DNA of 64,000 nt from Lunularia cruciata (lineage: Eukaryota > Streptophyta > Marchantiopsida > Lunulariales > Lunulariaceae), in NCBI GenBank assembly GCA_948567375.1, contig OX419755.1:253001-317000 (forward strand). Direction: 5' to 3'. A program made the translations under genes and the position numbers. How positions within the stretch are numbered: position 1 is the stretch's first letter; each line of letters starts with the position of its first letter. The notes under the pieces are model-generated. The model ran no database searches. It saw only the letters and a list, made by a program, of their open reading frames with translations, and was not told where the DNA came from. Shown here in pieces: positions 1-61,819 of the stretch.

Positions 1-119
1 CTAACTCTAGATAGCCATCTACTCTAAGTATATGGTATACCCTCTAATGGGCAAAGATCAGGAGGCCGGGTGCTATGGAGCCCCATTGTTAGTTGCATGT
101 CTGCAATCTATACCATATA

Positions 120-300
120 AAGAATGAACTGGCTAGAGGTCAAGTACATCTAGGACATAACCATTGTCCCTAAGGAACCACCATAAGGGAAGGAGTCATA
201 CATGCCATATGCCATCCTCTCGAACAGCTATCACACACTAACATAGTAGCACCTCCACCAGAAAGAGCCACATAACATACACCTCAAGCCTGCACGTACA
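120..300 (-). pseudogene. PHD-type zinc finger at the integrase C-terminus (element 1)
   Basis: Directly behind the integrase tail the minus strand reads CMLCG (about 275-290), then, after a one-base frameshift, ATMLVCDSC, then RGWHMACM, and finally, past a stop, GQWLCPRC. This C-x2-C ... C-x2-C ... H-x2-C ... C-x2-C spacing with the W-H-x-x-C core is the C4HC3 pattern of PHD fingers, which bind histone H3 tails; a role in choosing chromatin targets for integration is an inference. A TAG at 170-172 precedes the last Cys pair, and the second copy (element 2) has TAG at the same codon (60629-60631). Confidence 0.7.
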
Positions 301-1718
301 AGTGCCAAGATTGGGTCCATAGTACCATCAATGTTTGGGAGGTGGCATGGCGCACAATTGTGCACATGATCCTTCCAAACAACACCATCACGTCCTTCTA
401 ACACAAAGACTCTAGATGGCAAAACCTCACGCAATCTCAAGATAGTGCGGCCTATAGAAACATCAAGTGTCATCGGTGCTGCATGTTGTAGATATACATA
501 GTCGCTTGGATGAAATTGACGGATTGAGGGTCTATAACCTCCTCCTTGAATGGTAGTATAGAGTAAAGTATCTCTATGCTGAGCAATCGCCAAGTTCTCA
601 AAGGCCATTGGCATCACTCTCTGAAAGATCCCTGCCCGTTGAGAACATGCGTTCATCCATACATCGGGGTCATCCAAGTCCAAAACTATAGTAGCATCTC
701 AATGAATGGCTGCAAGTAAATATGGATCTCGTCCATAGAGTAGAAAGTATGGAGAGAAGGATGCTAAGGAGGCTTGTCGGCTGAACCGATAGCCCATGGC
801 CAACCAAGGTAATTGGAGATCCAAATCTCCCAAGTGGCCTCTCTGCAAACCATACTTTTGCAATCCTCTCTTCACTGTCTGAACCACTCTCTCTACTAAG
901 CCATCTGCCTCAGGGTGATCTCAGGATGTAGTATGATGATCAATCAAAGCCTTGTCGCACAAGACCTGAAATTCTCCCAAGAACTCTGTACCCTGATTAG
1001 TCAAAACCTGAGCTGGTGCACCAAAATGACTAAGAACTCAATCCAGGAACAAGTAAGTTGTCCCTTCTCTAGACTTGTCAGGAAGTGCCACCAACTCAAT
1101 CCACTTGGAGAAGGACTTCACCATCACCAAAACATATTGATGATGTCTCACAGTCAGCGGTAAAGGTCCGGCAAAGTCCAAACTCCAACGGTAACCCAAT
1201 CCCATGATATGTAATGGGTGTAATTGTGGTGTAGGAGCATTGAATGATGCTCTAACTCGGTCACAAACCACACATCTGGCAACAAACTGTTGTACCTTGG
1301 TCTGCATACCGAGCCACCAATAATGACTCTGGAGTAAGCTATATGTATGCTTTACTCCAAAATGTCCTAGCTCCTCATGAGCATGACGGACCAACTGTGG
1401 TCTCTATGATGGAAGTGGTACTACTCGCACTCTACCATCCTCCCATACATGCAAAAGGTGTCTACCCTCCAATCTGAACCGTCTGGCTCGCTGAAGAACA
1501 TGGTCTCTCTCCTTGGCCCCAACTGTGCCACCCACAATACCAGTGCAAAGATAGTCCATCACTAAGACATCATTATGAATGTCTCGCTGAACTGTATCAA
1601 TATCTTCACTCTCTAGATCTGTGACCTCAATAACTCCTCCTGTATATGTTGAGAGAGATACCACCAAAGCCTTTGCAAATATACACAAAAAGGCCGATGC
1701 ATGCCAACCTGGCACCAT
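301..1718 (-). pseudogene. Integrase (element 1)
   Basis: The module would insert the cDNA into the genome. The N-terminal zinc-binding part shows HEELGH and later CVVCD (1394-1255). The catalytic core begins with RWSLDFAG, its Asp at 1176-1178. At the second catalytic position the reading is LTNQGTEF, so the usual Asp is Asn, fitting a G-to-A change. The Glu region is HPEADGLVERVVQ (around 885-910). The C-terminal part (683-301) contains GGGYRPSIR, DYVYLQ and NCAPCHLPN, the tail found in plant gypsy elements that end in a PHD finger. Stops at about 1396, 1037 and 698 and a frameshift split it into four pieces. The upstream piece 1404-1718 is the poorly conserved linker between RNase H and integrase. 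Confidence 0.88.
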
Positions 1719-1760: not shown

Positions 1761-2384
1761 CTACTGGCTGAGACATGGGTTTCTACTCAACCCATCTACA
1801 TCACGGTTCACCACTCCAGGTCTATAAGCAATCGTGAAATCATACTCTTGTAAAATCAGAGCCCATCGTGCAAGCTTCCTTGAAAGCTTGTCGGACTCCA
1901 TCAACCACTTCAATGGCTGATGATCAATGATGAGAGTGAAGGGGTTACCAAATAGGTAACATCGAAAATGTGCTACTGCCCAAACTGCTGCCAAGCACCC
2001 TCCCTCATATGAACTATACTTCACCTCCGCTGAATTGTTGGAGCGACTAGCATAGGCCATCACAAACTCCTTCTCCTCATCATCATGCTGGGTGAGCACC
2101 GCTCCAAGCCCCAACATACTCCAATCAGTATGAACCTGAAATGTTCGTCCCTTGATCGGTCTCCTCAAAATAGGAGCAGATGCCAACCTCTCCTTGAGCT
2201 CTACAAAAGCTCTCTCCTGCTCATCTCCCCAACACCACTCCTGTGTAAGCTTGGTCAGCTTCGTCAAGGCCTTAGCAATGGCACTAAATCCTCTAACATA
2301 GCGGCGATAGAAGTTTGCCAACCCAAGGAATGCTTGCACTTTGCTCACATCCCTAGGCTGAGGAATACGTGCAATAGCCTCCAC
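1761..2384 (-). pseudogene. RT connection and RNase H (element 1)
   Basis: This open stretch of 207 codons is the best preserved part of the element. It opens with the RT thumb/connection (FLGLANFYRRYVRGFS) and continues into RNase H: HTDWSMLGLGAVL carries the first acidic residue, YSSYEGGCLAAVWAV the second, TLIIDHQPLKWLM the third, and it ends at VDGLSRNP, the usual end of gypsy RNase H. It removes genomic RNA during cDNA synthesis. It is separated from RT upstream by a single stop at about 2385-2390, so the two once formed one polyprotein. Confidence 0.92.
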
Positions 2385-2390
2385 CTTGGT

Positions 2391-3019
2391 CTACTGAACA
2401 CCAAGTCCTCTAGGGTAGATAGTATGACCCAAATACTCAACCTGCTTGTGGAAGAACCTACACTTCCCAAGATGTAATTTGAGTCCATGAGATCTCAACC
2501 TCTCAAACACCTCCAACAATTGTCTCTCATGCTCCTCCACATTAGTGCTATAAACCAAAATGTCATCAATATAGCACCGAGCAAAATCCAATCTAGCTAG
2601 GATCCTGTCCATGACCCTCTGGAACTCAACAAGAGCATTATTTAACCCAAATGGTAAGAACCTCCACTGATATAACACATCCTTGCCGTGAGGATCAATA
2701 GCCCAAAATGTTGTCTTGGACTTATCCTCCTCCCTGATAGGCAACTGATGATATCCCGCTCAAAGATTCAAGTACTGAGGATCTTTGCATGCCCAATCGC
2801 ATCAAAAATCTCCTCTGGTGTAGGCATGGCATACCAATCAGCCCTGGTCTCTCGGTTGATAGGACGGTAATCTCCACACATCCGCCTATCTATATAGTTG
2901 CCATGCATATCCTTCTTGGTTGGAATCATTGTCGTTGATGCATACTCTCCATGTGAAATCTCCACCAAACCAGCCTCAAAAAGGTCACTACTCCGGCTCT
3001 GAATCAATGTCTTCTCCAT
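2391..3019 (-). pseudogene. Reverse transcriptase (element 1)
   Basis: Two pieces, 3019-2768 and 2744-2391, cover the fingers and palm. The first contains CGDYRPIN and MPTPEEIFDAIGHAK; the second contains YQWRFLPFGLNNA and the catalytic box YIDDIL (2562-2573), followed by LGHTIYP. The YxDD aspartates are intact. A short broken stretch at 2745-2767 would hold the first palm aspartate (a STLDL-type motif in the family), which is not clearly readable. It copies element RNA into cDNA. Confidence 0.93.
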
Positions 3020-3253
3020 ATCACTATATTGATAAGGACGTCAGAAAACTGGTGTGTTGCTAGTCAGCTCAATCCGTATACCAGGTCCCTTTAGAGCACC
3101 CAAATCCTTCATAATGAAGGCAAAACAACTTGTGCGACTCCTCAAGAACCTCCAAACCCTCTGTCTTTCCTCTCCAGTAAGCTTGGGCCCAAGATCTGGC
3201 TCCCAAGTATCTTCTGTAACTGTAGTAGGAGGGGAAGACGTATTGACTGACTG

Positions 3254-4665
3254 CTACACTGGGCCCTTGGGAGCAATAGTGTCATGCTCCCGACCACTAG
3301 AGGTCCCAACCTCTATGTGAAAAACTCCCTCCACTCTGGCTACAAGCTTCACACGTCCTCTAGCTGCATCCCGTGTGGACCAAGGGTGTAATCCAAGTAA
3401 CCCATGCTCACCTGGATGGACTCCAAGTAGACCACTCTCCCTAGTAGCTACTGGATGTGTCCCAAGAATACCATGTCCAATTGGTCTATCGCCCCCAACA
3501 TGTGCCTGAATCGTCTTGATAGGCACAAGGCTCACAATTGTTCGAGTGGTGATGCCTATCAAGCGCATCCTACACTGCTCTACCAAGCCAAGGCTCACAA
3601 TCCAGGTCAAACAATTCAGGTCCATAGCCTGACCTAACACTTGGCGCCTGGATGCCTCTGACACTGCTGGAACAGCGGTAATACCGGTGTGAAAACCCAT
3701 TGCCCGCTCTCTCTCATCAGCATTGAGCTCCACCAACTACTGTAACTATGAGTCCCAAACAAGTCCAAGTCCTCCCTCTTGAAAAGCATGAGAGCCTAGG
3801 AAACTCATGAGTGTGGGAAATGCGGCTCTAGGCTATCCAACTAGGTTCACCACTACCATAGGTGACCTATCAGCCACTACCACTGTTTGAGACTGACGCC
3901 CGACATCCAAGATATCATCAACAAGGATGTGGTCAAGTAGTTGAATCCCATCATAAGCACACTGTAGAACCTCTCTGGGTAAGAGGTTTGTCCACTAAAG
4001 ACGAAGACAATGAGCCGTGATCCCACTCTGGTTGCATCTAACAATATAGTAGGTCCCATCCAAGAATGGACCTAATGTGTACTCGCCACCACTTTGGTGC
4101 GAGAATCACCCATCAAAGAAACGTTCTCCAAAAGGTAAGTTGGAGAAACGGATTGATGAACTTGGGGATGTCGTACAATCCGTAACATCTCCCAAAACAC
4201 ACCAGAACGAGGATCCCAAAGACCTAATCCTCTACCAGCACGTGTATGTCCCTAACATGGCCATCCAAAAATCACCAAGTGAATAGGCCCATGTCTCTCT
4301 AGGTCATGCACCCCCAATAAGGAAATGTCTCTTGGTAGGGCCTTCTGGTAACCTCTGACTGCTGACATCGGTAATAACTCTGAATACCGATAGGCCAAGT
4401 TTGCCACATGATGTAGAGAGACTTGCCTAGCAGTCTCATCTCTCTCTACATACAAGTACCTCTGTACTTGGATACCCGCCTATAACACCGCAGCTAGTCC
4501 GGTGCTGATCCCACCAAACAACTCCAATAGGCATATCTCCTCTACTGGATACTGCCAAGCAATGAGTGTGGTATCCAGAGGTGTCAAAGCAATTGCCTCT
4601 AGAGGCTCATCCTCACACTCATCTCCTAATGGTACGAAGGCTCCACTCCAAGCCTGTTGCACCAA
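3254..4665 (-). pseudogene. Cytosine-5 DNA methyltransferase domain inside the pol region (element 1)
   Basis: Between protease and RT the minus strand encodes a compact C5 methyltransferase of about 310 residues. Motif I (AdoMet binding) is LLELFGGISTGL at 4495-4530. Motif IV is FGWPC, with the catalytic Cys codon at 4255-4257, followed by a TAG and RAGRGLGLWDPRSG. Motif VI is LLENV (ENV at 4120-4128). Motif VIII starts at DATRVGSR (4015-4038) and continues after a frameshift as LRL-stop-WTNLLPRE. Motif IX is ERERAMGF (3692-3715) and motif X LGQAMDLNCLTW (3602-3637). About 95 residues lie between VIII and IX, a short target-recognition region. The enzyme class transfers methyl from AdoMet to cytosine C5. 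Downstream, 3254-3600 is a linker with a repeated LLG-x-HP pattern. At least five stops and a frameshift make this copy inactive. Confidence 0.85.
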
Positions 4666-4677: not shown

Positions 4678-5298
4678 CTACTGCAATGCCTCCTCGGAAC
4701 TCCACAATGGAACATCAAAGGTGGATGGAACAATCCCACTCGTACTCCAAAGCCAAGTCATCTCCTCTGGTACTGGAGTATCCTCTGCATGGGCGTTCCC
4801 CTCCAACAAGTCACCAGGCCATGTAACTGCACCATTGAAAGCTAAAACTGATGCTGCCATGGTCCTGGACTGTAGTGAGCCAAGACTGCCACTACTGAAG
4901 CGTACTGGTAGGCAACATACCCATCCCTCACCAGACTGCCAACCAGGTCTATAAGAGGTTGTCTCCTCCCAATAGTCAATGCTGAAACCCATGGAGTATA
5001 ACAATGCTCCCCCAACTAACACATCATATGACTCAGCTATCGTTGCAATAGCCTGAGCTCTCACCACCAAGCTATCAGTTGGATGACCAGGCTGAACCTG
5101 GATAACAAGCTCTCCATGTGTGATGTACTGTGTCGAACCACCACCTAGAGATGTTTGGATCTGAAATGGACACCTCTCCACATCGGTCTTTTGTAACTCT
5201 GGACCAAAAATTGCAGCCTTCCCCAACATAAAGGGCTGCACACTAGAGTCTAACAAGACTCTTTGTGGTGTGTAGACCTTCCCTAAAGGTCCCACCAA
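4678..5298 (-). pseudogene. Retroviral-type aspartic protease (element 1)
   Basis: The reading begins with VLLDSSVQPFMLGKA, the position of the D-S/T-G active site; here the Gly is Ser, so the catalytic triplet is broken. The downstream ESYDVLVGGALLYSMGF and YWEETTSYRPGW segments resemble the protease flap and C-terminal part of this gypsy family. It would cleave the Gag-Pol polyprotein. After residue 120 the piece becomes a linker rich in Ser and Trp leading toward the methyltransferase, separated from it by one stop. Identification rests on the position and the DS-box. Confidence 0.7.
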
Positions 5299-5313: not shown

Positions 5314-6000
5314 CTAGTTATCCAATAGGACAACACCAGGTGTGAACCGTGCTCTCTCAAAGGCCGGTCTAGCTGGCAACTCCTCCAGTCTAGCCGCTGC
5401 TGCCTGCCATAAACCACTGGTCGCTGAACGGATACCATGCTCCTCAACCAAGTTAGCTCCACTACCAACCACCTCTGCTCTAATAGTAGGAACCGCACCA
5501 TCCCTACTCTTACACAGCACGGCAGCCAACCGGAATACTGGGGTTGGGTCAACTCCAAATGTAAACATATCACTGGCCGAAAACAAAGGACGTTGCATAA
5601 TCAGCTGAGCCGCCCCCAACATCATGCTAGACTCAGTCTGTGTAGTAGCAAGTGGCTGACTAGCAAGTAGTCCATCATGTACTCCATCACCACCTACCAC
5701 ACCTACACTAGGACATCTAGGAACCATGGATGTTTTTTGTAATGCCTCAAATAGTGTGAAAGATTGGGGAAGTCTGACTCGTCTCCCAACCTCTCTTCTC
5801 TGTGGATCCAACTCCACTGATGCTCCTCTAGGCTCTAGAGCACGTATTGCACTCTTAGTCACTGCTGCAGATGCATCCACTTGTGCTGCTCTACACATGA
5901 AGTCCAAAGCATCTCTATCACTAGCATATGAGGTGAAAGCCTCAGCACCCAAATCTGATCTCCTCTGAGCAATAGCCATACTAGCCAATCTCTGCTCCAA
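5314..6000 (-). pseudogene. Linker between gag nucleocapsid and protease (element 1)
   Basis: An open stretch of 228 codons that follows the Gly/Arg-rich tail of gag after a frameshift and ends at a stop just before the protease. I do not recognise a domain in it. It contains an SYASDRDALDFMCRAAQ segment and a Pro/Val-rich middle. About 390 bp of it (5583-5975) are present a second time at 8193-8583. The corresponding linker in other gypsy elements is poorly conserved, so it may be a spacer in the polyprotein. Confidence 0.5.
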
Positions 6001-6004: not shown

Positions 6005-7255
6005 TCAATCCGAGTAGCCATAGCTGTGCAGAAGTAAGGGCAAGTACTGCACCCCTACTAGGTGTAGATCCTCTACCACCACCTCTACCACCTTGTCCTC
6101 CATGAACTGGAGCTCCTCTACTACCAGCCATAGCAGCCCTACCACTCCGTAACTCCGGGTGTAGGTCAAAACACCGGTCACTAGTGTGACCAAATCTGTG
6201 GCAGTGCTCACACTGTCTCTATGCTGGCTGTGATGCACCCAAAGTATCAGGTGCACTGCCTTGAGTAGACTCTCTCTGATGGTGAGGTCCACCATAAGTC
6301 CAACAAGCAACACCACCACTCATTGGCTACTGCTGACCCGATAACGAGGGTAAGGGTCTAACTCCATTAGGCCCTCCACTCGCTCCATAAGATCTGGGCT
6401 GTCCACCCTGTCCTCAAAAACCAACTGGTGTGGTGTACTCTACTGCACCTAGAAGAAGTCACATCCGTGGATGAGGTCTCCCTACCAAATCCAGCTGTCA
6501 CCACTCTCTCCTCTACCATGTTGAGCTCATTACGCTCAACCAAACCAAAGACCATTGCCAAAGTAGGCGAAGTAGCCTGTAACAACATAGCATCACAAAC
6601 TCTACGTCGTAACTTCTTGTCCCGGTATCCAATACCAAAACTGGACTGCTTGGGCTTCAATGACTCCCTAAGTGAAACTGATCAGCCGCTTCATGCGAGT
6701 GTATGCCTCATGTAGGCTCTCTCCAACCTTCCGCTAGAACTCTTGCAAGCTCCTCAGCTTGTCAGTCCGCACTCCTTGGTAGTTCTGCCTCAAACACAGG
6801 AAGAACTCCACCATGGGGTTAAACCCTGGTACCACACCACCTCTTGCAGCGGTACCTCCACTTGTAGTAGCACTATCTCCAGCTAGTGCACCACCACTAG
6901 CTCCACCCACACTACTCGAGCTAGAACTCGTAGGTACAGCCAATCTACTCTTGGCCACCGAGCCTGAAGTGATGGAGACATAGTGTGGAGACCAATACTG
7001 TCTCCATAACTCAATCTCTTCCAAATGAGCTCTCCTGAACTCATGGTAGTCATCCATTGGTAGACTCTCTAGATGCTGAAACAACCCCTTCCATGCCATG
7101 AAGGGTGTGAACAAAGTCGGGTTCCACATCTGCTGCAGATCACACCAACTATCGAAGTCCTGGATGAAGTCATCCAACTCAATGGTTCCCACTGTACCAT
7201 AGTAATGCCTAGGGCTTTTGGAGGCCCCATAAATCTCATCCATGTCCCACAACAA
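6005..7255 (-). pseudogene. Gag capsid and nucleocapsid (element 1)
   Basis: The start of the readable frame (7255) gives MLWDMDEIYG; LDDFIQDFDSWCDLQQMWNP and PPMDDYHEF-like PMDDYHEFRRAHLEEIE mark the capsid. GVRTDKLRSLQEF and ESLHEAYTRMKRLI belong to the Retrotrans_gag-type region. One nucleocapsid CCHC knuckle, CEHCHRFGHTSDRC, lies at 6171-6212 and is intact (C-x2-C-x4-H-x4-C), followed by a Gly/Arg-rich RNA-binding tail (GGQGGRGGGRG). It would package element RNA in virus-like particles. Stops near 6733 and frameshifts near 6660 and 6360 break it. Confidence 0.85.
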
Positions 7256-8192
7256 CGGTGTGAATACACCAAGTGCACTCTCAACTGAATCAGCTCATGT
7301 GTCGAACTCCAACTCAGAGTCAATCTCCTCCCTCATTAGGACCTGAGATACAAGCTAATATCGAGCACCACTCCGAGTAAACCCATTGCATACTGCAGGG
7401 CTAACTCCTCTGGAATCTCCAAAGAACTCCGTTGTGACAAAGTAACCGCAACAATAAACCCAAACCACCAACTGCAACCACAAGTACCCTACCAAGTGCC
7501 AACACCACCATGTGCCAACACCAACTAAGCATCATCCACTAATGTAACTCTAACCAAGATAACTACACTAGGAGAAAGGGCAACCTGTAACCTGCCATCA
7601 TAACACGCACTCTCACGGTCTGCAGGTCATCACTTCCTACCTCACCGGAGAGAAACAAAGGTAGTTTGACTAGTCATCACTCTAGCCTCACCACCGAGAG
7701 CACACCAGAGCACCAATGCTCAAAAGTCAGGGCACCTCACACAACGTGGTGCACAAACAGGAAGTAGAGAATGGGGGGGGGGTCCAATCACAAGAAATCT
7801 AAACAAAAACCCTCCATCTCATAACACAACACAGGACTGACTCTGCCACCATTTGGCATTTGACATAAGAGAAGTTCATATCTACCAAGATCACCAAGAA
7901 TGGGATCAAACTACCTCTCCTAGCCAAAACTACATGTGTATAGATAACAGTGACACTCACTATGACAACAAGTGAGGGTGGATCAGTTGGCTAGGGCACC
8001 AATCTAGGAACAAGAGATCTAGGGGTCAAACCCTATTGCGCATAATCTAGCAAAAAAGGCAGATTTTGCCAACCAATGACCAAGATCTACTCTAAACTAG
8101 CTAGCCTCACACCAGCAAGTTGGCTTGCTGGCCCTTCTAGGCCTTCGTAGCCTCTCATAGCCCTATGCCTCAAAGCCCTATCATCGTAACAA

Positions 8193-8583
8193 AAGACACC
8201 GCATAATTAGCTAAGCCGCTCCCAACATCATGCTAGACTCAATCTGTGTAGTAGCAGGTGGTTGACTAGTAGGTATTCCATCATGTACTCCATCACCACC
8301 TACCACACCTACACTAGGACGTCTAGGAACCATGGATGTTGTCTATAATGCCTCAAATAGTGTGAAAGATTGGGGAAGTCTGACTTGTCCCCCAACCTCT
8401 CCTCTCTGTGGATCCAACTCCACTGATGCTCCTCTAGGCTCTAGAGCACGTACTACACTCCTAGTCACTGCTGTAGATGCATCCACCTGTGCTGCTCTGC
8501 ACATGAAGTCCAAAGCATCTCTATCACCAACATATGAGGTGGAAGCCTCAGCAACCGAATTTGATCTCCTCTGAGCAATAACC
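8193..8583 (-). repeat. Displaced duplicate of the element 1 gag-protease linker
   Basis: This stretch matches 5583-5975 in the same orientation with only scattered base differences. It encodes an 80-codon piece (8585-8343) almost identical to part of the 228-codon linker. The left break is at the gcataat/agctaagccgc motif and the right break at ctctgagcaata; outside these points similarity stops at once. Confidence 0.88.
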
Positions 8584-9005
8584 AAAATCCAACCAAAATC
8601 TGACGTAAACCCTAAAGTTGGCTATCCGCCAAATCCCCCACTAACTTTCCACTCGAGCCAAATTGACAACACGGGTTTTCCAAATCACAAATTCATGAGA
8701 AGAGCTTCCCAACTCCACCTTCAATTTGACTTTTTGAGTCCAACTTGCAGCAAAGTGGTCCTACCTTTACCTCCTGAGCTCAAAATCACAACCATTGCTC
8801 AAAATTTACTCCTTCTTTGCTCAAAATTTGGCCAACGCTTCCGCACACCGGCCGTCTAACTGCCAAATCTGCATCAATTAATTGAGCTTCTACACACTAG
8901 GGAAACATTGAACTTGAATCAAGCTACCAATGATCCACCAAGCTTGGAGATACCACCAACACTCAAAGTTCCTACACTCGATTTCCCCCTGACTTCACTC
9001 TAGGA

Positions 9006-9031: not shown

Positions 9032-9034
9032 TGA

Positions 9035-9485
9035 TGTAATCAGATTGCTTACCACTCTCAAATCAACTCAACTCAGATCAGTACTTGATCTGTCACTCTA
9101 TAAACTGCCAACAACTAGGTACTGATTACAATCAAGCCACACCCACTCCAGCATAGAGAATCTAGGTGACGCTCGCCGGCCTCTGTCCACCATAGCCAGG
9201 AACTCGAAGGCTCAACATCAAAGAAGTGAGCTCTTTGGAGCTCACTTCAAAACTATAACCCTTGGACTCGAGCTAGCTCTAAAACCCTAATGGTCTCGCT
9301 GACGGCACACTCAACGGTGCGAACGGTGCAAAGTGATGGTGGGCCCCACCGTGAAGTCAGTACCCCAAACACCAAATCTGACCGTCGGAAAGTAGTCTTT
9401 GGGAAACTACTGAAATAACTCTAACTACTATCACTGGAACTCTAGTGTCCGAGCATCTAGATGCGGCACTACAAATGGCCTGACA
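9035..9485 (-). repeat. 5' LTR of element 1
   Basis: The segment starts TG and ends CA (TGTAATCAG ... GCCTGACA in plus orientation) and matches 59896-60321 in element 2 over its whole length. It directly abuts foreign pol sequence at 9486, which is the expected border of an inserted element. Length about 451 bp. Confidence 0.7.
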
Positions 9486-10804: not shown

Positions 10805-11934
10805 AGTAGATTACCTGCAGACGGTAGTATGCCCGTTGTTGGTGAAGATGGAGAAGAAGAAGAAAGAGATGCAGTCTACTTGTCCAGAGGTAAAGACTGT
10901 GTTGCAGGTCTTATCAAGATTAGAAGAAGAAAACTGGGAGTTGAAGAAGAGTATAACCCGAGGTGAGGAAGAGAGAGAAGTATTGCGAGCGGAAGCAGTT
11001 GAGAAGAGTCAGGTAATCGAAGGCCTGAAGAGAGAAGTGAGTTATCGAGAAGATCTTGTGAGGAAGAGTGACATTGCAAGGGAGAGACAGGTAGCGGAGC
11101 ACAAAATCTTGAAGCAGCAGTTTGTTGATTCAAGAGTAGAACTTATCCATGCTATGGCAAGGGTAGCATCAAAGGATCAAGAGCTCGATCGAGTGATGGA
11201 GAGTATGGAGGAGAAGAAGCAACTTTGGCAACAAGAGTTGGCTGTGAGATATAGAGAAGAAGAGAGATTACGAGAATTACTTCGTAATCAGGAAGAGAAG
11301 GTTGGACAGAAGGAGAAAGAGAAGGAAGCGGTAAAGGCTGAATTCGAAGAAGAATTGGCGATGTACAGAGAGGACTGGCTTGCAGATCGGGAATGAGAAT
11401 GCAAGACAAGATTGGAGCCATTGAAGGAAATAGTCCTCAGAGTGAACACAATGTTAAGTACAGAGGCCAGCGTTTGAATTGAAGAGACGAGACTGCACGA
11501 GTTGAAATTGTTGGTGCAAGAGACGGGGCAAAGACAAGCGAAAGACACCGAGATGAACGCCTTGTTGATTAAATTGAGAACTCGTGTAGATAGGAAGATA
11601 TTAGAGGTAGAAGACAATATTGCGATTAGATTAGACTTAGTGAGAATAGAGTTAGAAAAGCTTCGGCAGGATGTTAAGGCAAAACCCGAAGTAGATAACA
11701 TAGGAATCCAAATGTCTTTGGAGTTGCCCTCAGAGACATTAGGGAAGAGTGGGTTGAACGATGAAGAGTTAGATAGACTACCCACTAGTGCAATTTCAGA
11801 TCAGGAAAGAGAATTGCTGGATATGGTAGAAGATGTAGGAGATCTGAAACCCAAGGAAAAGATAGTAGGAAGTAAGATTACTTCGGGTTCGGGTTTGAAA
11901 GCCGAGGAAGAAGTAGACATCGGATCGGATTAGT
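10805..11934 (+). pseudogene. LTR-encoded coiled-coil protein, C-terminal part (copy A)
   Basis: The best preserved copy of this reading: about 376 codons with only two TGA codons (about 11394 and 11476). It contains YLQTVVCPLLVKMEKKKKE, long Glu/Lys/Leu heptads typical of a parallel coiled coil, then ETRLHELKLLVQET, DRKILEVEDN, RLDLVRIELEKLRQ, LPSETLGKSG and the end EEVDIGSD-stop. The same C-terminus occurs in B (EEVDIGSE) and C3' (AKVDIRSE). No catalytic motif is visible; an assembly or nucleic-acid-handling role would be a guess. It sits in an LTR upstream of the TATA-like box at 12048, hence in U3. Confidence 0.8.
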
Positions 11935-12047
11935 AACCGATTTGAGATTTGAAGGGGCAGATATGAAGAGGTGCATTGTCATTTTGGATCTGCAGGTTAG
12001 AACAATTGTTGTAGGAACGGTATAGTTGTTAGAACTGTTGATTGCTT

Positions 12048-12060
12048 CACTACTTAAGAG
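12048..12060 (+). promoter_or_regulatory. TATA-like box of LTR A
   Basis: cactacttaagag lies at the same place as cactatttaagag in LTR B (17390) and cttatttaaagg in LTR C3' (57637), each followed after about ten bases by a shared cattc segment. Conservation across three divergent LTRs suggests the core promoter; the transcript start would be about 30 bp downstream. Confidence 0.5.
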
Positions 12061-12732
12061 TGGCATTCGCAGAGAATTGTTGTTCAGTGCTCATTATTTC
12101 AGAGAATAGATAAAGCGAAGTGCTGTGAAGCAGTGCTCATTGCTTGAGCTAGATTCCGAGTATCAGCTTTGTGATTGTGTTTGTGAATGTTTGGAGAAAT
12201 TCAAAGTGCAAGTCAAAGTGTTTGTTGGATGTCGGATTCCACAGCCTTGATCTTCATTCTGTGTGTTTGATCTTGAGTGAAGTGCAATCGAAGCAATGCC
12301 TTGACAGATCTGAGAGGAATTGTAGTGTTGGTAGTATTTTGCATTTGTGAGTGCAATGCAAAGTTGATGTGAAGCAATTTCGATCGAGGAAGTTGTGCCT
12401 TCAGTGGAGGGGTGGAACACAATTCTGAGGCAAAGTTGTTTTGCAGTGAAGTGCCATTTTTGGGAGAGCCTGAATCATCACAATCAAGATTGTTTGGAAA
12501 GATTTGATGGAGTTGTGATTATGGAGTGTTAATTTGTGACAAGACTGCGAGTCAATGCTTGGTACTCTCTTCTGGGTGTGGTTTCTACCTGAGAGATTAA
12601 AGACACAACCAAGAAGAACTGACATTGTTGCTTTACTTTGTATTTGGACATTTCTGACTCGTATCTCTGCGGGAACGAACTTTACTTACCCGATTACCGC
12701 AAAAGTGATATTTGCCGGGTTGTCACAATGCT

Positions 12733-13002
12733 TGCAAGGAATTTCACCACTACCTGCTGGGATACGAGTTTGTCTTCTATGTTGAGCATTATGCATTGCA
12801 ACATTTGGTCAAGAAGGCAGATTTGTCCATGCAAATTGCAAGATGGATCTTGTTGTTACAAAAATTCACATACACTGCACAAGTAGGGAAAGGAGCTTTG
12901 CATTCAAATGCGGACTTCTTATCCAAGTTAGAAACTCAAGACCAAGACTTGGAAGTTGATGATCGGTTTCCTAATGAAGAGCTATATCATCTGATGGCTG
13001 TT
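12733..13002 (+). pseudogene. RNase H C-terminus (element B)
   Basis: Readings YEFVFYVEHYALQHLVKKAD, IARWILLLQKFTYT and HSNADFLSKLE match the end of gypsy RNase H; the same segment in element C is at 54220-54420. A frameshift lies near 12790. Upstream it continues at 9486-9503 on the other side of solo LTR A. Confidence 0.85.
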
Positions 13003-13008
13003 TGAAGT

Positions 13009-14260
13009 ATGAGGTATGCGACCAAATATCACTATCTGCATACATGTCATTGTCTTGAGGGGCTAGACCCGGAGCAGAGTGCAGTCTTCCTCCGGAAGAT
13101 GGGATTGTACCAATTAAAACACAACATTTTGTTTAAGATGGGCAAAGATGAAGTACTTTGGAGATGTTTGGAGGCATACAAAGTCGGAGAAGTCATTGAA
13201 TCCTTACACTCTGAAGCATTGGGAGGACACTATGCCCTGAAAAATACGGTGAAGAAAATCCTTTCAGTAGGGTATTGGTGGCCTATAATGTATAAAGATA
13301 CTTATGCCCATATTTGAAGTTGTGATGCCTGTCAAAGAACAAAGAAACCGATGGCGACTTCCCAGTTGCCTTTGAAACCAATTTTGGCATTGGCCCTATT
13401 TGAGAAATGGGGTATTGATTTTGTGGGTCCCATTCAACCAGTGACTAGAATCACAAGGAAGAGATACATCTTAGTATGCACTGATTATGCAACCAAGATG
13501 GTAGAAGCGGAGGCAACACAAAGAGATGATGCGGAAATAGTTGCAGAATTTTTCTTCTAAAACATCATTTCCCATTATGGGTATCCTTTGGAATTGGTCA
13601 ATGATCAGGGAACTCATTTTTTGAACTCAATGGTGGAAGGGAATCGTTAACCAAGTACTTCCAAATTAAACATTGGAAGACCACAACCCAAAAGAAAATG
13701 AACTCACGGAGAAGGCCAACGGATTGTTGTGCAAAATTTTGAATAAGGTTATAGTCAATTATGCCTACAACTAAGACACAAAGTTACCTATAGCTTTGTG
13801 GGCATATAGAACAATTGGAAAGATTACTACCAAGCAAACTCCTTATTTCCTGACATACGGATTGCATCCCATACTACCAGTTGAATTTGAAGTACCAACA
13901 TATCGGATTCTTTGTGAAGAATGATTGTCGGAGGAAGAAAGCCAGAATCTTTGGATCCATCAATTGATGTGGTTAGAAGAGAAAAGGGACAATGCAATGC
14001 AAACCACAAAGGAAGTCCAAGAACAGCGAAAGGTCAGGCTTGATAAAAGAATCAAGCATGTGGCTGTTCAGGATGGGGACTTGGTATTGTTATATGACAA
14101 TTGTCACATATTTTTTCCAAGGAAACTACATTTGACGTGGATGGGGCCATACTGTGCTATGCACCTATATGCCAATGGCTCTATTCAACTTGCAGACCTG
14201 GATGGCAATCCTTTTGCCACTTGAGTAAACGGGAGGAGGGTTAGAAAATATTGGACCACG
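13009..14260 (+). pseudogene. Integrase (element B)
   Basis: HSEALGGHYALK with CDACQRT forms the zinc-binding head (stop TGA between them at about 13316). The core shows KWGIDFVGP and LVNDQGTHFLNS with both Asp. Behind them the frame is lost several times (13560-13920); it resumes with LMWLEEKRDNAMQTTKEVQ and KLHLTWMGPY, the usual C-terminal barrel. It closes at RVRKYW-like sequence before the polypurine tract. No chromodomain or PHD finger is seen in this family. Confidence 0.85.
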
Positions 14261-14316
14261 GACCCGACCTTGTATAAAGAACCGGTTGTCGGTGTTCGCG
14301 GGGATGCTCACATTTG

Positions 14317-14341
14317 AGCCGCGGGGGGGGGGGAGAGAGAG
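14317..14341 (+). other. Polypurine tract of element B
   Basis: A run of eleven or more G followed by agagagag ends six bases before the LTR start tgtggtgcacac. It is the primer for plus-strand synthesis. Confidence 0.75.
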
Positions 14342-14687
14342 TTGTATGTGGTGCACACATTTTTTGTTTATTTGGGAGAAGAAGTAAACAAAGAAAGCTG
14401 AATTGTGAAAGAAGGAATGGACGGGAGTGACTTTGGAGGAAATCCGAAGAAGTCAAGATCGGATCCGATGATGGAGGTACACAGGAGAGAGGTACAAAGA
14501 AATAAGTCCAAAGAGCATCATCTTTGGATTGGGAAGTGAAGGCTGCTACAAAGACCATCTAACAACCTTGGTACGTAGCAATAAAGTACACTTCAAGAAA
14601 CAATGGAGGCAAAAGAAGCATGTCTTGATAGTGACAAGATAGCAACACACAGAAGAAGTGGAAGTTGATTTTGAAATTGACTAAAGA

Positions 14688-16280
14688 ATGATTGCAATTT
14701 GGAGTAATATAAAATTGCAATTGCACAGGGACAAGTTGAATATATCAAGTACATTTCCAATCCCTCTGAGTAGTTGTCCTGCAGTAATGCGTGTCAAGAA
14801 GCCAATTGAGAGTGAAATTTTCCAAAATCTAGAAGAGGTTAGAGTGTCTCGTCCAAGAGAAGGAATAGTTTTCCAATGCCAAAGAACAAGAGAGTAGATC
14901 ATGGCAAAGAAGGTCATGAATGCTTTGGCAGTGCAAATTTTCACAATTCATAGGTTAGACGTTGTAGAAGGATCGAAGTCTTGAACAGACTTTGTATTAC
15001 CTTTTTAGCATGGAATTGGGATTTCAGTTTCCTAGGAGTCATGGCAGAGATAGCTGCCAACAATTGTGAGGAAGGCCCCAAAGTCAAGGGAAAGAGGGGA
15101 AATCCGGCTTGATGGACTGAGTTGGATTGGAGGTTAGTGTTGGGGAAGGAAGCAGGAGAACCGACGGCGATCACCTTCCATCAGAAGTGTGATGTTGCAA
15201 AGGAGATGGTGGAGATCCAAAATTTGTTCTTTGCTCCGTGTACAACAAATGGTTACAAGGTGGAGTCCTATCAAGACCCGATTAAATAAAGTATCGTGAT
15301 TACAATAATAGCTATGTTCAAACCAAAACAAAAAACTTATGTGAATATGCAACAGGTAGTCTTTTTCCACCGGATGTTTGCAAGAGTGAAGGTGAACTGG
15401 GTGAAGTGTTTTCACCAATGAACAAGGCAGATGGTGGTCAATTGGAGGACAGGTTTGCCTCCACATTATTTCACACCATTGTAGCACACTTCTACTTTGG
15501 GTTGAACTTGTTGACAATAGAGGAGAGGCGTTGCATGGTGTCGTATTTCCATCCTGATTTGAGACAGGAAGCGGATGAAGAAGAACAACAATATATGACA
15601 CACTTGCAAGCCAGTGATGACCACTTCTTGAGAAAGGGACAATGGAAGTTGGAAGAAGTCACAAGTCCAAAGAAGAAGAGGCGCAATAAACCCAAAGATG
15701 CACGGTCACCTCCAGCACAAAGGAAGACCCAAAGACTGGTTCTACAGAGGAAGAAGATGGTGATGGAAGCATCATCGAAAACCGAGTCTAAAGGGGAGGT
15801 AGAGTCTTGAGGAGAGGACTTAGAAGAAGACGAATCCACTTTACAAAGTGAAGAATCCGGAAGTGAGAGTGAGGGGGAACACAAGGTTTAGCAATTGGTT
15901 GGAGTGAGTGAAACTTGTCATGCGATGATTGATAGTGTACCAGGAAAGAAGAATCATTGTGTAGCCTTGGTGGAGGAAGGGAAGGAGGCTGAAAGATGGA
16001 AGGAGTATCCTACGGGGCCGAGTTCAGTAGGTAAGGAAGAAGAAAGATCGGAAGTAGTATCTCTAAAGATACAAAGATCACGACTTTGGCAAAAGGAGCC
16101 AATGGAAGAGGTTAAGTATGAAGATAGGGCCAAAGATGAAGAGAACTTTGGCGGAATACAATACCTATCAAAGGTTGTCACTCCATTGTTGGAACTGTTG
16201 AAGGAGCACCAAAAGGTAATTCCCCAAGATTGTATGAACGTGACAAATGAGTTGCAGGTAGTGAAGTATCTGCTGGTTGA
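14688..16280 (+). pseudogene. LTR-encoded protein, N-terminal and central parts (copy B)
   Basis: Pieces in order: IESEIFQNLEEVRVS (about 14797-14845), WTELDWRLVLGKEAGEP (15115-15170), NGYKVESYQDPIK, FKPKQKTYVNMQQVVFF, then ERRCMVSYFHPDLRQE (15526-15572), a basic stretch KKKRRNKPKDARSPPAQRK, CHAMIDSVPG, VVSLKIQRSRLWQKEPM and IQYLSKVVTPLLELLKEH. The same blocks in the same order are in LTR D. Many TAG/TGA stops and several frameshifts. Function unknown. Confidence 0.75.
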
Positions 16281-16329
16281 AGTGTAGGGGTTGCAGGAAC
16301 GAGTAGTCCAAGAGATGAGGAAGTTGAAA

Positions 16330-17279
16330 AACTTTGGGTGGATGCAGTCTTGAAGAAGAAGACTTTCAAGAAGTTGCAAGAGAGTTTTGAGTCAAGAAGT
16401 AAGGAGTTGCAGAAGCAAGCCAAAGAATTGAAAGAGCAGGCAATGTTGATGACCAAGATGAAAGAGGAGGTCAGTGATGTGCGCATCGAGAGTATTCATG
16501 TGAAGGCGATGGGCACAATAATGGAGTAGGAGTTGGAAAGCTTGAGGAAGAGTGCAGTTGGGAAGGATCAAGCATGGCAAAGAGAGTTGGCGGTCAAGCA
16601 TCAAGAAGAAGAAAGATTGCACAAGCTGGTACAAAGTGCTGAGTTATAGAGTTCATAATATGTGGAGGAGAAGAAGCTGCTCGCTGCTAAGTACAAAGAT
16701 GAGTTGAAGATGTACCGTGAAGAGTTGACGGTAGAGCGATCTCGAGGTTATGAGTCGGAATCAGTAGGAGAAGTTGCAGGAAAGTTATGAGCAATCTTGA
16801 GCACAGAGACAGAAGGGAGATTGGAAGAAGCACGTCTACATGAGTTAAAGTTGCTTGTGTTGGAAACTCGGAAGAGAAAAGCCAAAGATGTGGATATGAA
16901 CACTTTGCTGATCCAATTAAGGGAGCAAGTAGATCAAAAGATGTTAGAAGTAGGAAACAATGTCAGTCTTAGATTAGATTTAGTCAAGTCAAAGTTAGAG
17001 CAAATCAGGAATAATGTGACAGTGGAAAGGAAGTCCGATGTTGTAGAGGTAGGAATTCAGGTGTCTTTGGACTTGTTATTTGAGACATTAGAGAAGAGTG
17101 GGTCGAAAGATAAAGAAGTAGATGAATTACCCAAGACCTCAATTGTAGATTGTAGAGAAGAAGTAGTGGAAGCAGTGAAGAAATTAGTAGAATTAGATAT
17201 ACTCAAAGAAGGAGAAGTAGTAGGAAGATCATTGGGTTTGAAAGCCAATGAGGAGGTTGACATCGGATCGGAGTAGTAA
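16330..17279 (+). pseudogene. LTR-encoded coiled-coil protein, C-terminal part (copy B)
   Basis: The first half (16338-16529) is Lys/Glu/Leu-rich helix; the second (16797-17276) is open for 159 codons and aligns with copy A: EARLHELKLLVLETRKRKAK, DQKMLEVGNN, RLDLVKSKLEQI, GIQVSLDLL, ending EEVDIGSE-stop. Same end as A although the DNA has diverged, which points to past coding constraint. Confidence 0.78.
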
Positions 17280-17389
17280 TAGTTTTGAGATTTGAAGAGG
17301 CATATATGAAGGGTTGCATTATCAGTTTGGATCTGCAGGTTAGAAGAGTTGTTGTAGAATGGTATTTTTGTTAGAACTGTCATTTGCTT

Positions 17390-17402
17390 CACTATTTAAG
17401 AG
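17390..17402 (+). promoter_or_regulatory. TATA-like box of LTR B
   Basis: cactatttaagag, positioned about 110 bp after the end of the LTR reading frame, as in LTR A. Confidence 0.5.
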
Positions 17403-18070
17403 TGACATTCATAGTGAATTGTTGTTCAATATTCATATTTTTGAAGATAGATAAAGTGAAGTGCTGTTTTTAGTGCTTGTCACTTGAGCTTGATTCCGAG
17501 TATCAATTCTATGTTTGTGTTTGTGAGTGTTGGGAGAATTTTTGAGCAAGTCAGTATGTCTATGGATGTTGGATTCCGCAACCTTGATCTTCATTTTGTG
17601 TGTGTGTGTGATCTTGAGTGAAGTGCAATCGGAGCAATGCCTTGAAAGATCTAAGAGGAATTGTAGTGTTGGTAGTATTTTGCATTTGTGAGTGCAGTGC
17701 AAAGTTGATGTGAAGCAATTTTGGTCAAGGAACTTGTGCCTTCAGTGGAGGGGTGGAATGCAATTCTGAGGTGAAGTTGGTTTCACAGTGAAGTGCTGTC
17801 TTTGGGAGAATCTGAATCATCACAATCAAGAGTTGTTTGGACAAAATTTTCTATGTTGTGATTAAGGAGTGTATGAGTGACGAGTTGTCAAGATTGTGAG
17901 CTTGTTACTCTCTTCTGGGTGTGGTTTCTACCTGAGAGATTAAAGACATAACCAAGAAGAACTAAAATTGTTACTTTGCTTTGTATTTAGAAATTTCTGA
18001 ATTGTATCTCTGTAGGAACAAACTTTACTTACCCGATTATCGCAAAAGTAATATTTGCCGGGTTGTCACA

Positions 18071-19111: not shown

Positions 19112-19239
19112 TTTCTAAAATACTTCTTTGTACTTGGTGGTCCATTGAAAGCTTGAGATCTTCTCCAAGAGATTGGTCAATGGTGCGGCCACATGAGCAT
19201 AGTAGCGGATGAACCAATGATAAAAACCTTGCAAATCCA

Positions 19240-54480: not shown

Positions 54481-54499
54481 ATGCGGGAAATATCATTAT

Positions 54500-59790: not shown

Positions 59791-59895
59791 ATTGTGCGTA
59801 TATACAATGCTACGCAACATACATAATTGTTAACATCACACACTATAGAAGCACCATTCACACATAAGTCATACTTGGACTCTAAAGTACCACAA
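59791..59895. repeat. 105-bp block flanking the element 2 LTR (left copy)
   Basis: Near-identical to 60322-60429 in the same orientation (gcgtatatac ... acatcacacactatagaagcac ... aagtaccacaa). The two copies enclose the LTR core. Confidence 0.9.
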
Positions 59896-60321
59896 TGTAA
59901 TCAATTTGTTTACACAACTTGAATCTCTCTCAATCAGATCAGGCATTGATCTGTCACTCAATAATCTGCTAACAATTGAGCACTAATTATAGTCAAGCCA
60001 CACCCACTCTAGCTAAGAGAATCCAAGTGATGTTCATTTGCTTTCTGTCCACTCTAGCCAAGAACTTGAAGGCTCAACAATAGAGAAGTGAGCTCTTTGG
60101 AGCTGCACTCCTAGGGTATACTCCTGATTTTGACCTAGGTCTCACCCCAATGGTGCAAATGGTGCAAGTGACGGTGGGCTCCACCATGTAGTCAATACCC
60201 AAAACACAAAATCTGATTGTTGGAAAGTAGTCTATGAGTAATTGCTAAAATACCTCTAACTATTATCACTACTACTCTAGTCTTTGAGCAATCTAGATGC
60301 AACACTATAAATAGCATGACA
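59896..60321 (-). repeat. 3' LTR of element 2
   Basis: Matches the 5' LTR of element 1 (9035-9485) end to end, TG...CA. 426 bp. It has one half of the palindrome seen in element 1. Confidence 0.75.
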
Positions 60322-60429
60322 ATTGTCTTGCGTATATACATCACTACACAACATACATCATTGTCAACATCACACACTATAGAAGCACAACTCACACATA
60401 AGTCATACATGGATTCTAAAGTACCACAA
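60322..60429. repeat. 108-bp block flanking the element 2 LTR (right copy)
   Basis: Partner of 59791-59895. It lies between the integrase/PHD end and the LTR. No polypurine tract is visible at 60322; an alternative reading is that this block belongs to the LTR, which would then be 533 bp (59896-60428). Confidence 0.9.
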
Positions 60430-60599
60430 TCGCCTCACTAGCTGGTGGTTAGGTCCCTCTAACTCCAAATAGCCATATACTCCAAGTATATGTTATACCC
60501 TATGGTGGGCAAAAGATCAGGAGGCCGGGTGCTATCAAGCCCCATTGTTAGTCGCCTATCTGCAATTCATACCATATAAAGGATGAACTAGCTAGAGGT

Positions 60600-60910
60600 C
60601 AATTACATCTAGGACATAACCATTGTCCCTAAGGAACCACCACGAGAAGAAGAGTCATACATGCCATATGCCATCCTCTCAAATAACTATCATACACTAA
60701 CATGGTAGTAGCTCCACCAAAAGAGCCATATAATATACACCATAAGCCTGCACGCACACGTGCCAAGCTTGTGTCCATAGTACTATCAATGTTTGGGAGG
60801 TGGCATGGCGCACAATTGTGCACATGATCCTCCCAAACAACAGTGTGTCCTTCCAACACAAGGACTCTAGATGATAACACCTCGCGCACTCTCAAGATAG
60901 TCCGGCCTGT
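60600..60910 (-). pseudogene. Integrase tail and PHD finger (element 2)
   Basis: MRVREVLSSRVLVLEG, HVHNCAPCHLPN, then CILYG, ATTMLVYDSY and RGWHMACM: two zinc-binding Cys are Tyr here, while the H-x2-C part is intact. After VVVP a TAG (60629-60631) precedes GQWLCPRC, as in element 1. The reading frame is otherwise open for 88 codons, without the frameshift found in element 1. Confidence 0.78.
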
Positions 60911-61591: not shown

Positions 61592-61819
61592 GGCTTGTAG
61601 AAACATCAAGTATCATTGTTGTTGTTTGTTGTAGATATACATAATTGCATAGATGAAATGATAGATTGAGGGTCTATAACCTCCTCCTTGAATGGTAGCA
61701 TAGTGCACAGTACCCTTATGTTGAGCAATTGCCAAGTGTGGTGTCCAAATTTTTAGTTTTTCTTTGTTTATTAGCATTTGAGGGAAGAAGTAAGCACAGA
61801 AAGCTGAATTGCAAAAGAA

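What the first reader, a model, noticed from the sequence alone, without database searches (positions are those of the whole stretch)
3590..4535. A Ty3/gypsy retrotransposon that carries its own cytosine-5 DNA methyltransferase
Six conserved C5-methyltransferase motifs (I, IV with the PC dipeptide, VI ENV, VIII, IX, X) lie in the right order and spacing between the element's protease and RT. Retrotransposon-borne methyltransferases are, from memory, reported in dinoflagellates and charophyte algae; presence in what looks like a land plant would widen this. Methylation of its own cDNA could silence the element early or hide it from host defence; both are hypotheses.
Basis: partly seen in the sequence, partly recalled or inferred. 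Interest (0 to 1): 0.93.

Follow-up and report, generated by a model that had tools for sequence, protein, structure and literature searches.

The report
Plant retrotransposon carrying a DNA methyltransferase
This is a decayed copy of a still-young family of plant jumping genes that carries its own DNA-methylating enzyme, a kind known from one green alga and here seen in mosses and liverworts, with signs that the enzyme is kept intact by selection and that the element inserts itself by an unusual route.

Summary
In detail: a DNMT3-type cytosine-5 methyltransferase (MTase) lies between protease and reverse transcriptase of a Ty3/Gypsy-type polyprotein. The window copy is dead (in-frame stops, frameshift) but belongs to a large young family in its 566-Mb host genome. 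All 20 copies opened as 10-kb stretches carry PR-MTase-RT-RH-IN plus a PHD finger. Named relatives sit in Marchantia, Sphagnum, Calypogeia and Riccia assemblies, so land plants carry the lineage. Variants shared among copies suggest purifying selection on the MTase, about as on RT/RH/IN. MTase and RT are separated by an in-frame TAG followed by CAR-YYA, the tobamovirus-type readthrough motif (39 of 41 copies, and a relative with about 50% identical MTase), so the MTase is probably made with the abundant Gag-protease product. The ends are split repeats, A-internal-B-A-B, with TGTC...GACA termini and 4-bp target duplications (14 of 17); the B-A junction is a conserved palindrome. I infer insertion by a DDE integrase from a joined or circular intermediate. 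The closest known element is KnitGypsy-Dnmt3 (Klebsormidium, 2018), also with DIRS-like repeats. Self-methylation before insertion is the likeliest role; no activity was tested.

The parts
9034..9485 (-). 5' terminal repeat A1 of this copy, truncated at its 5' end
   Evidence: 73% match to the 3' repeat of a second fragment at 59895-60321; compare repeat A of genomic copies
6005..7255 (-). gag region with a CCHC knuckle near 6212-6132 (frames broken)
   Evidence: tblastn with L001 ORF1; translation; no Pfam match on 6737-7255
4681..5298 (-). aspartic protease ORF and linker
   Evidence: colinear with the protease region of L001; no Pfam match of its own, and the L001 protease is below the Pfam cut-off (PF13650 20.5 bits, cut-off 24.3)
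3563..4548 (-). DNMT3-type C5 methyltransferase; 7 in-frame TAG and one frameshift near 4020
   Evidence: class from relatives
3248..3256 (-). TAG CAG TCA: stop between the Gag-PR-MTase and RT-RH-IN-PHD frames, fitting UAG-CAR-YYA
   Evidence: TAG CAG in 41 of 41 distinct copies read (window included), next codon YYA in 39 of 41
2394..3253 (-). reverse transcriptase
   Evidence: PF00078 E 7e-23 on 2394-2744; tblastn 3274-2771 and on
1764..2384 (-). RNase H
   Evidence: PF17917 E 1.3e-33
704..1394 (-). DDE integrase (zinc-binding domain and core, broken by TGA stops)
   Evidence: PF17921 E 3e-16, rve 17.5 bits below its cut-off; tblastn HSP 2771-267, 60% to L001
146..302 (-). PHD finger at the end of Pol (frame 1 to frame 2)
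   Evidence: PF00628 E 3.9e-11 on a joined piece; tblastn 277-146, 58%
59885..60908 (-). 3' fragment of a second copy: PHD finger, 3' UTR and B-A-B terminal repeats
   Evidence: 87% to window 1-453; repeats
61592..61737 (-). further piece of the second copy (84% to window 449-595)

Best explanation
The finding is a dead copy of a young, high-copy retrotransposon family of a bryophyte-like plant. SHOWN: the order is gag-PR-MTase, one in-frame UAG-CAR-YYA, then RT-RH-IN-PHD; the MTase is DNMT3-type; variants shared among copies are short of nonsynonymous changes in it; integrated copies read to their ends have split repeats A-internal-B-A-B, TGTC...GACA ends and mostly 4-bp target duplications; the internal B-A junction is GACA-GC-TGTC. 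INFERRED: readthrough of the UAG yields much Gag-PR-MTase and little RT-IN-PHD, so the MTase is packed with Gag in the particle. RT primed after repeat A and finished from the purine tract before B would make an ordinary linear cDNA with (B-GC-A) at both ends. These ends are then joined. The DDE integrase opens one GACA^GC^TGTC palindrome, drops GC and inserts, giving A-internal-B-A-B. The MTase methylates this DNA before or at insertion, so that host maintenance enzymes keep new copies quiet. This limits damage to the host and lets the family persist. The PHD finger probably tethers the integration complex to histone H3.
For: MTase class: sequence profile best to DNMT3A (E about 1e-20) with DRM2 weaker (about 5e-9); AlphaFold model of relative P0001 (pTM 0.82) best to DNMT3A/3B in PDB, all 50 rows shown being DNMT3 entries. 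Catalytic Cys kept in 88 of 91 relatives with that column, ENV Glu in 112 of 122. Family: 20 of 20 copies have PR, MTase, RT, RH, IN and PHD pieces. Selection: variants shared by 3 or more copies change the protein in 14 of 28 cases for MTase (expected fraction 0.735, p 0.0066) and 16 of 33 for RT+RH+IN (p 0.0026). Stop: TAG-CAG in 41 of 41 distinct copies, YYA next in 39; TAG CAA TCA in L001; motif described for plant viruses in PMC5382211 (passages). Termini: 14 of 17 copies with both ends show a 4-bp duplication (7 of 8 by eye, 7 of 9); among 8 copies, B1 and B2 share a private variant in L016 and L018; the palindrome occurs once in L001, its GACA starting 105 positions after the end of a G run, against 106 in the host family. 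Methylation footprint: private C>T per possible site CG 0.313, CHG 0.284, CHH 0.066, A>G 0.021.
Against: No enzyme activity, readthrough or circle was measured. CG and CHG decay is explained by host MET1/CMT alone and does not show self-methylation. The Klebsormidium enzyme gave no methylation in yeast, a result its authors call inconclusive (PMC5890265, passage). Selection is not clear-cut: private variants, which should be neutral, are also mildly short of protein changes in the MTase (77 of 118, p 0.029) and RT+RH+IN (95 of 147, p 0.018), variants in exactly 2 copies show no clear depletion (17 of 28, p 0.096), and a shared-versus-private Fisher test is not significant for the MTase (p 0.31). 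The A2|B2 junction is identical in 22 of 25 copies, less variable than free end joining would give. Within-copy B1/B2 differences average 0.63 against 1.07 between copies, a small gap. The window's downstream RNA is not unusually folded (z 1.72), unlike L001 (z -3.36). Host copies are 97-99% alike, so their agreement on the stop is not independent. P0146 and P0151 have no stop between MTase and RT.
Confidence: 0.5

Rival explanations
1. The MTase is a passenger or captured host gene fragment without a role for the element.
For: The window copy is broken. No activity is known for this lineage. The plain shared-versus-private test is not significant (p 0.31).
Against: It is present in 20 of 20 copies opened (picked from MTase hits), in relatives at about 50% identity with catalytic residues mostly kept, and shared variants are short of protein changes much as in RT/RH/IN. 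Retro-MTases form one side of a branch apart from this host's own DNMT3 genes (100/100), so it is an old component and not a recent capture.
Confidence: 0.08
2. The MTase protects the element's DNA intermediate (from nucleases, sensing or self-insertion) instead of silencing the inserted copy. Methylation near the palindrome could also decide when the circle is opened.
For: The MTase is on the Gag side of the stop. The palindrome and its flanks, CACGACAGCTGTCACG, hold CG and CAG/CTG sites. The intermediate seems to be a joined DNA form.
Against: No direct data; the role of the sites is speculation.
Confidence: 0.2
3. The MTase acts on host chromatin or host genes (for example silencing competitors or defence genes), or on RNA.
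For: A PHD finger is present in the same element. DNMT-bearing elements were proposed to affect the host epigenome (PMC5890265, abstract).
Against: PHD and MTase lie on opposite sides of the stop. K. nitens has a plant-like methylome despite such elements (PMC5890265 section 9).
Confidence: 0.12
4. The A-internal-B-A-B ends come from a DIRS-like copying scheme in which the B-A junction is a template for both ends, without an end-joined circle.
For: DIRS elements have the same repeat order (PMC5890265). The A2|B2 junction is precise in 22 of 25 copies.
Against: The G-rich tract directly before B and the primer-side border directly after A would place ordinary cDNA ends exactly at the A2|B2 junction. 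The variants +CATCA (L023) and +CA (second copy in the window) look like imprecise ends.
Confidence: 0.3

Closest known systems
KnitGypsy-Dnmt3 of Klebsormidium nitens (de Mendoza et al. 2018, PMC5890265; abstract, section 9 and passages read)
   Same: DNMT3-type MTase inside a Gypsy polyprotein; repeats reported as DIRS-like with Gypsy domains; purifying selection on the MTase.
   Different: Found here in land plants. The paper's main text has 0 hits for PHD and for readthrough and protease. Its figures and supplements were not seen, and its sequence was not at hand.
SymbioDIRS-Dnmt3 and SymbioLINE-Dnmt of Symbiodinium (same paper, passages)
   Same: Retrotransposon-borne DNMT; SymbioDIRS enzymes methylate CG de novo in yeast.
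   Different: Tyrosine recombinase or LINE machinery; the authors treat the Klebsormidium acquisition as independent.
DIRS/PAT elements with split direct repeats
   Same: A-internal-B-A-B repeat order.
   Different: Here a DDE integrase, TGTC...GACA ends and 4-bp target duplications; no tyrosine recombinase in the Pfam scan of the L001 ORFs.
Type I stop readthrough of tobamoviruses (UAG-CARYYA; PMC5382211 passages)
   Same: Same 9-nt motif at the end of the upstream frame.
   Different: In a Gypsy-type retrotransposon, between MTase and RT; efficiency not measured.
Cellular plant DNMT3 and DRM
   Same: DNMT3 fold, with motif order as in DNMT3.
   Different: Retro-MTases form a separate side of the tree from the host's two DNMT3-like genes, its DRM-like gene and human DNMT3A.

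Membership tests
DNMT3-type C5 methyltransferase | motifs I, IV, VI, VIII, IX, X in this order (not rearranged as in DRM) | tested here: met
DNMT3-type C5 methyltransferase | catalytic PC cysteine and ENV glutamate | tested here: met
   present in the window; Cys in 88 of 91 and Glu in 112 of 122 relatives (9 have Lys); 8 of 91 have E in place of P before the Cys
DNMT3-type C5 methyltransferase | closest solved fold is DNMT3 | tested here: met
   on relative P0001
DNMT3-type C5 methyltransferase | groups with cellular DNMT3 rather than other DNMT classes in a tree | tested here: inconclusive
   only DNMT3 and DRM rows served as cellular comparison; the lone DNMT3A row attached weakly (62/85) on a very long branch
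DNMT3-type C5 methyltransferase | methylates cytosine in DNA | not testable with these tools
   bench assay needed
Ty3/Gypsy (Metaviridae-type) retrotransposon | Pol order RT-RNase H-DDE integrase, with gag CCHC and protease upstream | tested here: met
   RT-RH-IN by Pfam and in 20 of 20 copies by BLAST; CCHC and protease by alignment and pattern, Pfam being weak there
Ty3/Gypsy (Metaviridae-type) retrotransposon | identical complete LTRs at both ends | tested here: not met
   A at the 5' end, B-A-B at the 3' end (8 of 8 copies); A2 is followed by B2 in 17 of 20 tails fetched, one of them (L069) with a poorly matching B2, 3 not located
Ty3/Gypsy (Metaviridae-type) retrotransposon | TG...CA termini and a 4-6 bp target duplication | tested here: met
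   TGTC...GACA; 4 bp in 14 of 17 copies
DIRS/PAT | split direct repeats | tested here: met
DIRS/PAT | tyrosine recombinase, no target duplication | tested here: not met
   DDE integrase and no PF00589; 4-bp duplications
KnitGypsy-Dnmt3 lineage | DNMT3-type MTase in a Gypsy polyprotein with DIRS-like repeats | tested here: met
KnitGypsy-Dnmt3 lineage | sequence relationship to the Klebsormidium element | not tested
   no record named Klebsormidium was among the listed hits
Type I UAG-CARYYA readthrough | motif directly after an in-frame UAG, open frame downstream in the same frame | tested here: met
Type I UAG-CARYYA readthrough | measured readthrough | not testable with these tools
   reporter assay needed

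The most novel reading that the evidence does not exclude
An ancient streptophyte lineage of Gypsy-type elements inserts not from the ends of its linear cDNA but from an end-joined (two-LTR circle-like) DNA, opened by a DDE integrase at a conserved palindrome inside the repeat (GACA^GC^TGTC). It packages a DNMT3-type methyltransferase, made on the Gag side of a leaky stop, to methylate that intermediate before insertion.
Probability: 0.3. Interest if true: 0.9.

Novelty: new variant of a known kind. Interest (0 to 1): 0.75.

Why it matters
It takes retrotransposon-borne DNA methyltransferases from one charophyte and dinoflagellates into land plants, including the model liverwort Marchantia polymorpha, where the enzyme could be tested. 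It gives such an element a translation layout that would make the methyltransferase abundant, gives signs of selection to keep it, and exposes an odd end structure that joins DIRS-like repeats to a DDE integrase. That makes the question why an element would methylate its own DNA directly testable.

Tried and rejected
Rejected: chance motifs (Pfam, homologs, fold); a one-copy insertion; recent capture of this host's DNMT3; an ordinary LTR pair, which I assumed until and which contradicted. A stop-codon reassignment was considered when all MTase stops were TAG; TGA stops elsewhere, CAG>TAG and CGA>TGA changes and the C>T excess in CG and CHG fit 5mC decay instead.

Led nowhere: viral-contig scan (3 weak loci, 32-40% identity over a short part); the RNase H search to name the host (269 proteins, 120 listed; only Calypogeia fissa named among them, up to 79% over 57%); genome-wide counts of TAG versus sense codons at the stop (pattern searches not answered; only the TRA form answered: 22 TAA, 0 TGA). 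A first test of shared versus private variants was not significant for the MTase (p 0.31); the later test against a context-dependent expectation was, but there private variants were mildly depleted too.

Literature: 10 searches of the held open library; in their listings and the passages I opened I saw no report of a DNMT-bearing retrotransposon in bryophytes. PMC6338049 (passages) says such transposons are absent from land plants such as tracheophytes. PMC12344493 (passages) mentions streptophytes and dinoflagellates, citing the 2018 paper. Seen only as passages: PMC9516144, PMC10952607, PMC6453930, PMC8616336, PMC8566409, PMC5382211. PMC12440569 (Troyka): outline, abstract and one passage; it has 3-bp duplications and CG ends and is reported from animals, so it differs. 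Other papers appear only in search listings. On checking, the odds of the passenger rival were raised from 0.06 to 0.08 because of the private-variant result.

Full report
OBSERVATION. The minus strand of 4548-3563 encodes a C5 methyltransferase with motifs I, IV, VI, VIII, IX and X in order. In this copy the frame is broken by one frameshift near 4020 and seven TAG codons. Four of those TAGs stand where many relatives have Gln, one where they have Trp, and two at unclear positions. Pfam PF00145 passes its cut-off on the N-terminal piece; the C-terminal piece alone has no match. The element is colinear with gag, protease, MTase, RT, RNase H, integrase and a PHD finger.

WHAT THE ENZYME IS. A phmmer search with the closest relative (P0001) and a profile of 32 relatives both rank DNMT3A first among solved structures, DRM2 lower and HhaI/HaeIII lower still. 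A model of P0001 (pTM 0.82; mean pLDDT 77) matches DNMT3A/3B best, TM 0.75-0.82 by target length for the single-domain chains. In a tree of 35 rows, the 31 retro-MTases form one side of a fully supported branch, apart from two DNMT3-like genes and a DRM-like gene of the same host genome and human DNMT3A (long branches and partial rows make the cellular side's inner order unsure). In the earlier tree of 76 rows the single DNMT3A row joined a retro row weakly (62/85) on a branch of 2.4, so that tree does not place the root. The capture is therefore probably old.

HOW WIDESPREAD. The first homolog search gave 172 proteins at E <= 0.001, of which 120 were listed. The long-polyprotein search gave 37. 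Named sources are the liverworts Calypogeia fissa, Marchantia polymorpha, M. paleacea and Riccia sorocarpa, three Sphagnum species, and the zygnematophyte Closterium sp. NIES-53 (partial); Calypogeia and Closterium were looked up. For each of Calypogeia, Marchantia polymorpha, Riccia and Sphagnum at least one hit sits on a contig of 20 Mb or more, so these are not stray contaminants. One hit bears a bacterial MAG name, and L001 is filed under a cyanobacterial MAG; I read both as eukaryotic contamination (inference). In the tree of 76 rows the window lies in a set of 21 rows (100/95) that holds all Calypogeia, Marchantia and Sphagnum rows that were long enough to enter it; Riccia, M. paleacea and the other fragments were left out for coverage. 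Two layouts exist: MTase before RT, and, in five proteins (P0152, P0155-P0158), MTase upstream of the integrase. In the three of these that include RT and RNase H, it lies between RNase H and integrase. All five carry a PHD finger. The five plus P0076 form one supported clade, so the MTase has moved within the polyprotein, or was regained.

THE HOST GENOME. The window is part of a 565.8-Mb unnamed assembly. A PF00145 search scored 123 matches of 2161 candidates, so the count is a lower bound, and not all 123 are this family. Four opened matches are cellular genes: two DNMT3-like, one DRM-like, one CMT-like (L005-L008; names by my reading). Twenty matches opened as 10-kb stretches, chosen for long open frames, all carry protease, MTase, RT, RNase H, integrase and PHD pieces. 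In two of them (L016, L021) both frames are open with only the TAG between them; I single out none for use. Copies are 96.6-98.6% identical to one of them over the coding part. The A repeats at the two ends could be paired in 16 of 20, with 15 at K2P 0.003-0.041 and one at 0.11. The window copy is more diverged (93.0% over 8.2 kb), hence probably older.

SELECTION AND DECAY. Private C>T changes per possible site are 0.313 in CG, 0.284 in CHG and 0.066 in CHH, against 0.021 for A>G. This is the footprint expected of CG and CHG methylation. Against an expectation built from that spectrum, variants shared by three or more copies are depleted in protein changes (stops counted) in the MTase (14 of 28, expected 0.735, p 0.0066), as in RT+RH+IN together (16 of 33, p 0.0026) and gag (12 of 29, p 0.0003); RH and IN alone are not significant. 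Leaving out CG and CHG changes gives 4 of 14 (p 0.0007) for the MTase. Against this, private variants are mildly depleted too in the MTase (77 of 118, p 0.029) and in RT+RH+IN (95 of 147, p 0.018), and variants in two copies are not clearly so (all). A plainer shared-versus-private Fisher test was not significant for the MTase (p 0.31). Taken together the MTase looks about as constrained as the polymerase; with the conservation of its catalytic residues across relatives I take it as selected, but the within-genome test is modest.

THE LEAKY STOP. In L001, an intact relative whose MTase is about 50% identical, gag-PR-MTase ends in TAG followed by CAATCA and the RT frame continues in phase. In the window the same place reads TAG CAGTCA. 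Of 41 distinct host copies with this place covered (20 opened as 10-kb stretches, the window, 20 others), 41 have TAG followed by CAG and 39 have a YYA next codon; L014 has CTT and L036 CAA (five of the stretches given to one search did not cover it). An exact pattern for TAA or TGA at this place found 22 TAA and no TGA; the matching counts for TAG and for sense codons did not complete. UAG-CARYYA is the type I readthrough motif of tobamoviruses and others (PMC5382211, passages). Many other relatives end their first frame shortly after the MTase, whereas P0146 and P0151 run from MTase into RT without a stop. Readthrough itself is inferred.

THE ENDS. I first took the termini for LTRs. They are not ordinary ones. 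Copies start with TGTCACG (repeat A, about 449 bp) and end with B (106 bp...CACGACA); before the last A-B lies another B, joined to A by GC: GACA-GC-TGTC. The A side borders the internal region where a primer site should be; I could not assign a tRNA. The B side follows a G-rich tract (AGGGGGGCGA). Four-base target duplications are found in 7 of 8 copies read by eye and in 7 of 9 with both ends located (in 11 of 20 copies of that call one or both ends were not located). The A2|B2 junction is the same in 22 of 25. L023 has five extra bases, one other (L074) differs by one, and one (L069) is unclear. L001, assembled with a 127-nt exact end overlap as a circle, holds the palindrome once, its GACA starting 105 positions after its own G run. 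Fifteen of 20 host copies hold it intact in the stretch fetched. B1 and B2 of a copy share a private variant in 2 of 8 copies, L016 and L018, as if copied from one template. The simplest reading is given under best explanation; a DIRS-like templated scheme is the rival. The 2018 paper's Fig. 4 legend already says that the Klebsormidium element has DIRS-like repeats with Gypsy domains, so the repeat order is known. I did not see the target duplications, palindrome or leaky stop in the parts of that paper I read; its main text has 0 hits for readthrough and PHD, and figures and supplements were not seen.

HOW IT PROBABLY WORKS. The MTase is made with Gag and is likely to be in the particle in excess over RT. 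Methylating its own DNA before insertion would hand the copy to host CG/CHG maintenance, which is where old copies end up. Whether the gain is restraint, protection of the intermediate or something else is open. The PHD finger, with the C4HC3 pattern and a GWH core (recalled to resemble readers of unmodified H3K4), is present in the 20 copies opened and probably guides insertion.

VERDICT. Real, well supported, and a new variant of a known kind: a Gypsy-type DNMT3 retrotransposon in land plants with a readthrough layout and unusual integration ends.

Noticed in passing
window 59885-60908 and 61592-61737, minus: A second fragment of the same family with PHD finger and B-A-B end repeats.
   Followed up: partly
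window 5582-5978 and 8188-8584: A 397-bp stretch of the gag/protease region is repeated (92%) in the 5' leader of the window copy; not checked in all other copies.
   Followed up: partly
window 11489-18070, 18662-20017, 47768-49611, 53834-58332 (several): Other Ty3-like RT fragments and long purine-rich coiled-coil-like ORFs, repeated at 74-79% across the window.
   Followed up: no
L001 6763 and host copies L016 9136, L013 9255: A non-coding motif TGGGGCTC....GCACCCGGCC after the Pol stop is conserved between elements whose proteins are only 43-75% alike; role unknown.
   Followed up: no
L013 5' and 3' flanks: This copy is inserted inside the 3' part of another copy of the same family, with a TCTT duplication.
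   Followed up: yes
P0152, P0155, P0156, P0157, P0158: Relatives with the MTase directly upstream of the integrase (between RNase H and integrase in the three that include RT and RNase H); hosts unnamed.
   Followed up: partly
P0146, P0151, P0076: Relatives with WEC in place of WPC in motif IV, among 8 of 91 rows that have E before the catalytic Cys.
   Followed up: no
L001 1-127 and 9159-9285: A 127-nt exact end repeat: the contig, filed under a cyanobacterial MAG, looks like a circular assembly of one element unit.
   Followed up: partly
L005, L008, L006, L007: The host has two cellular DNMT3-like genes, a DRM-like gene and a CMT-like gene (by reading of the translations).
   Followed up: partly
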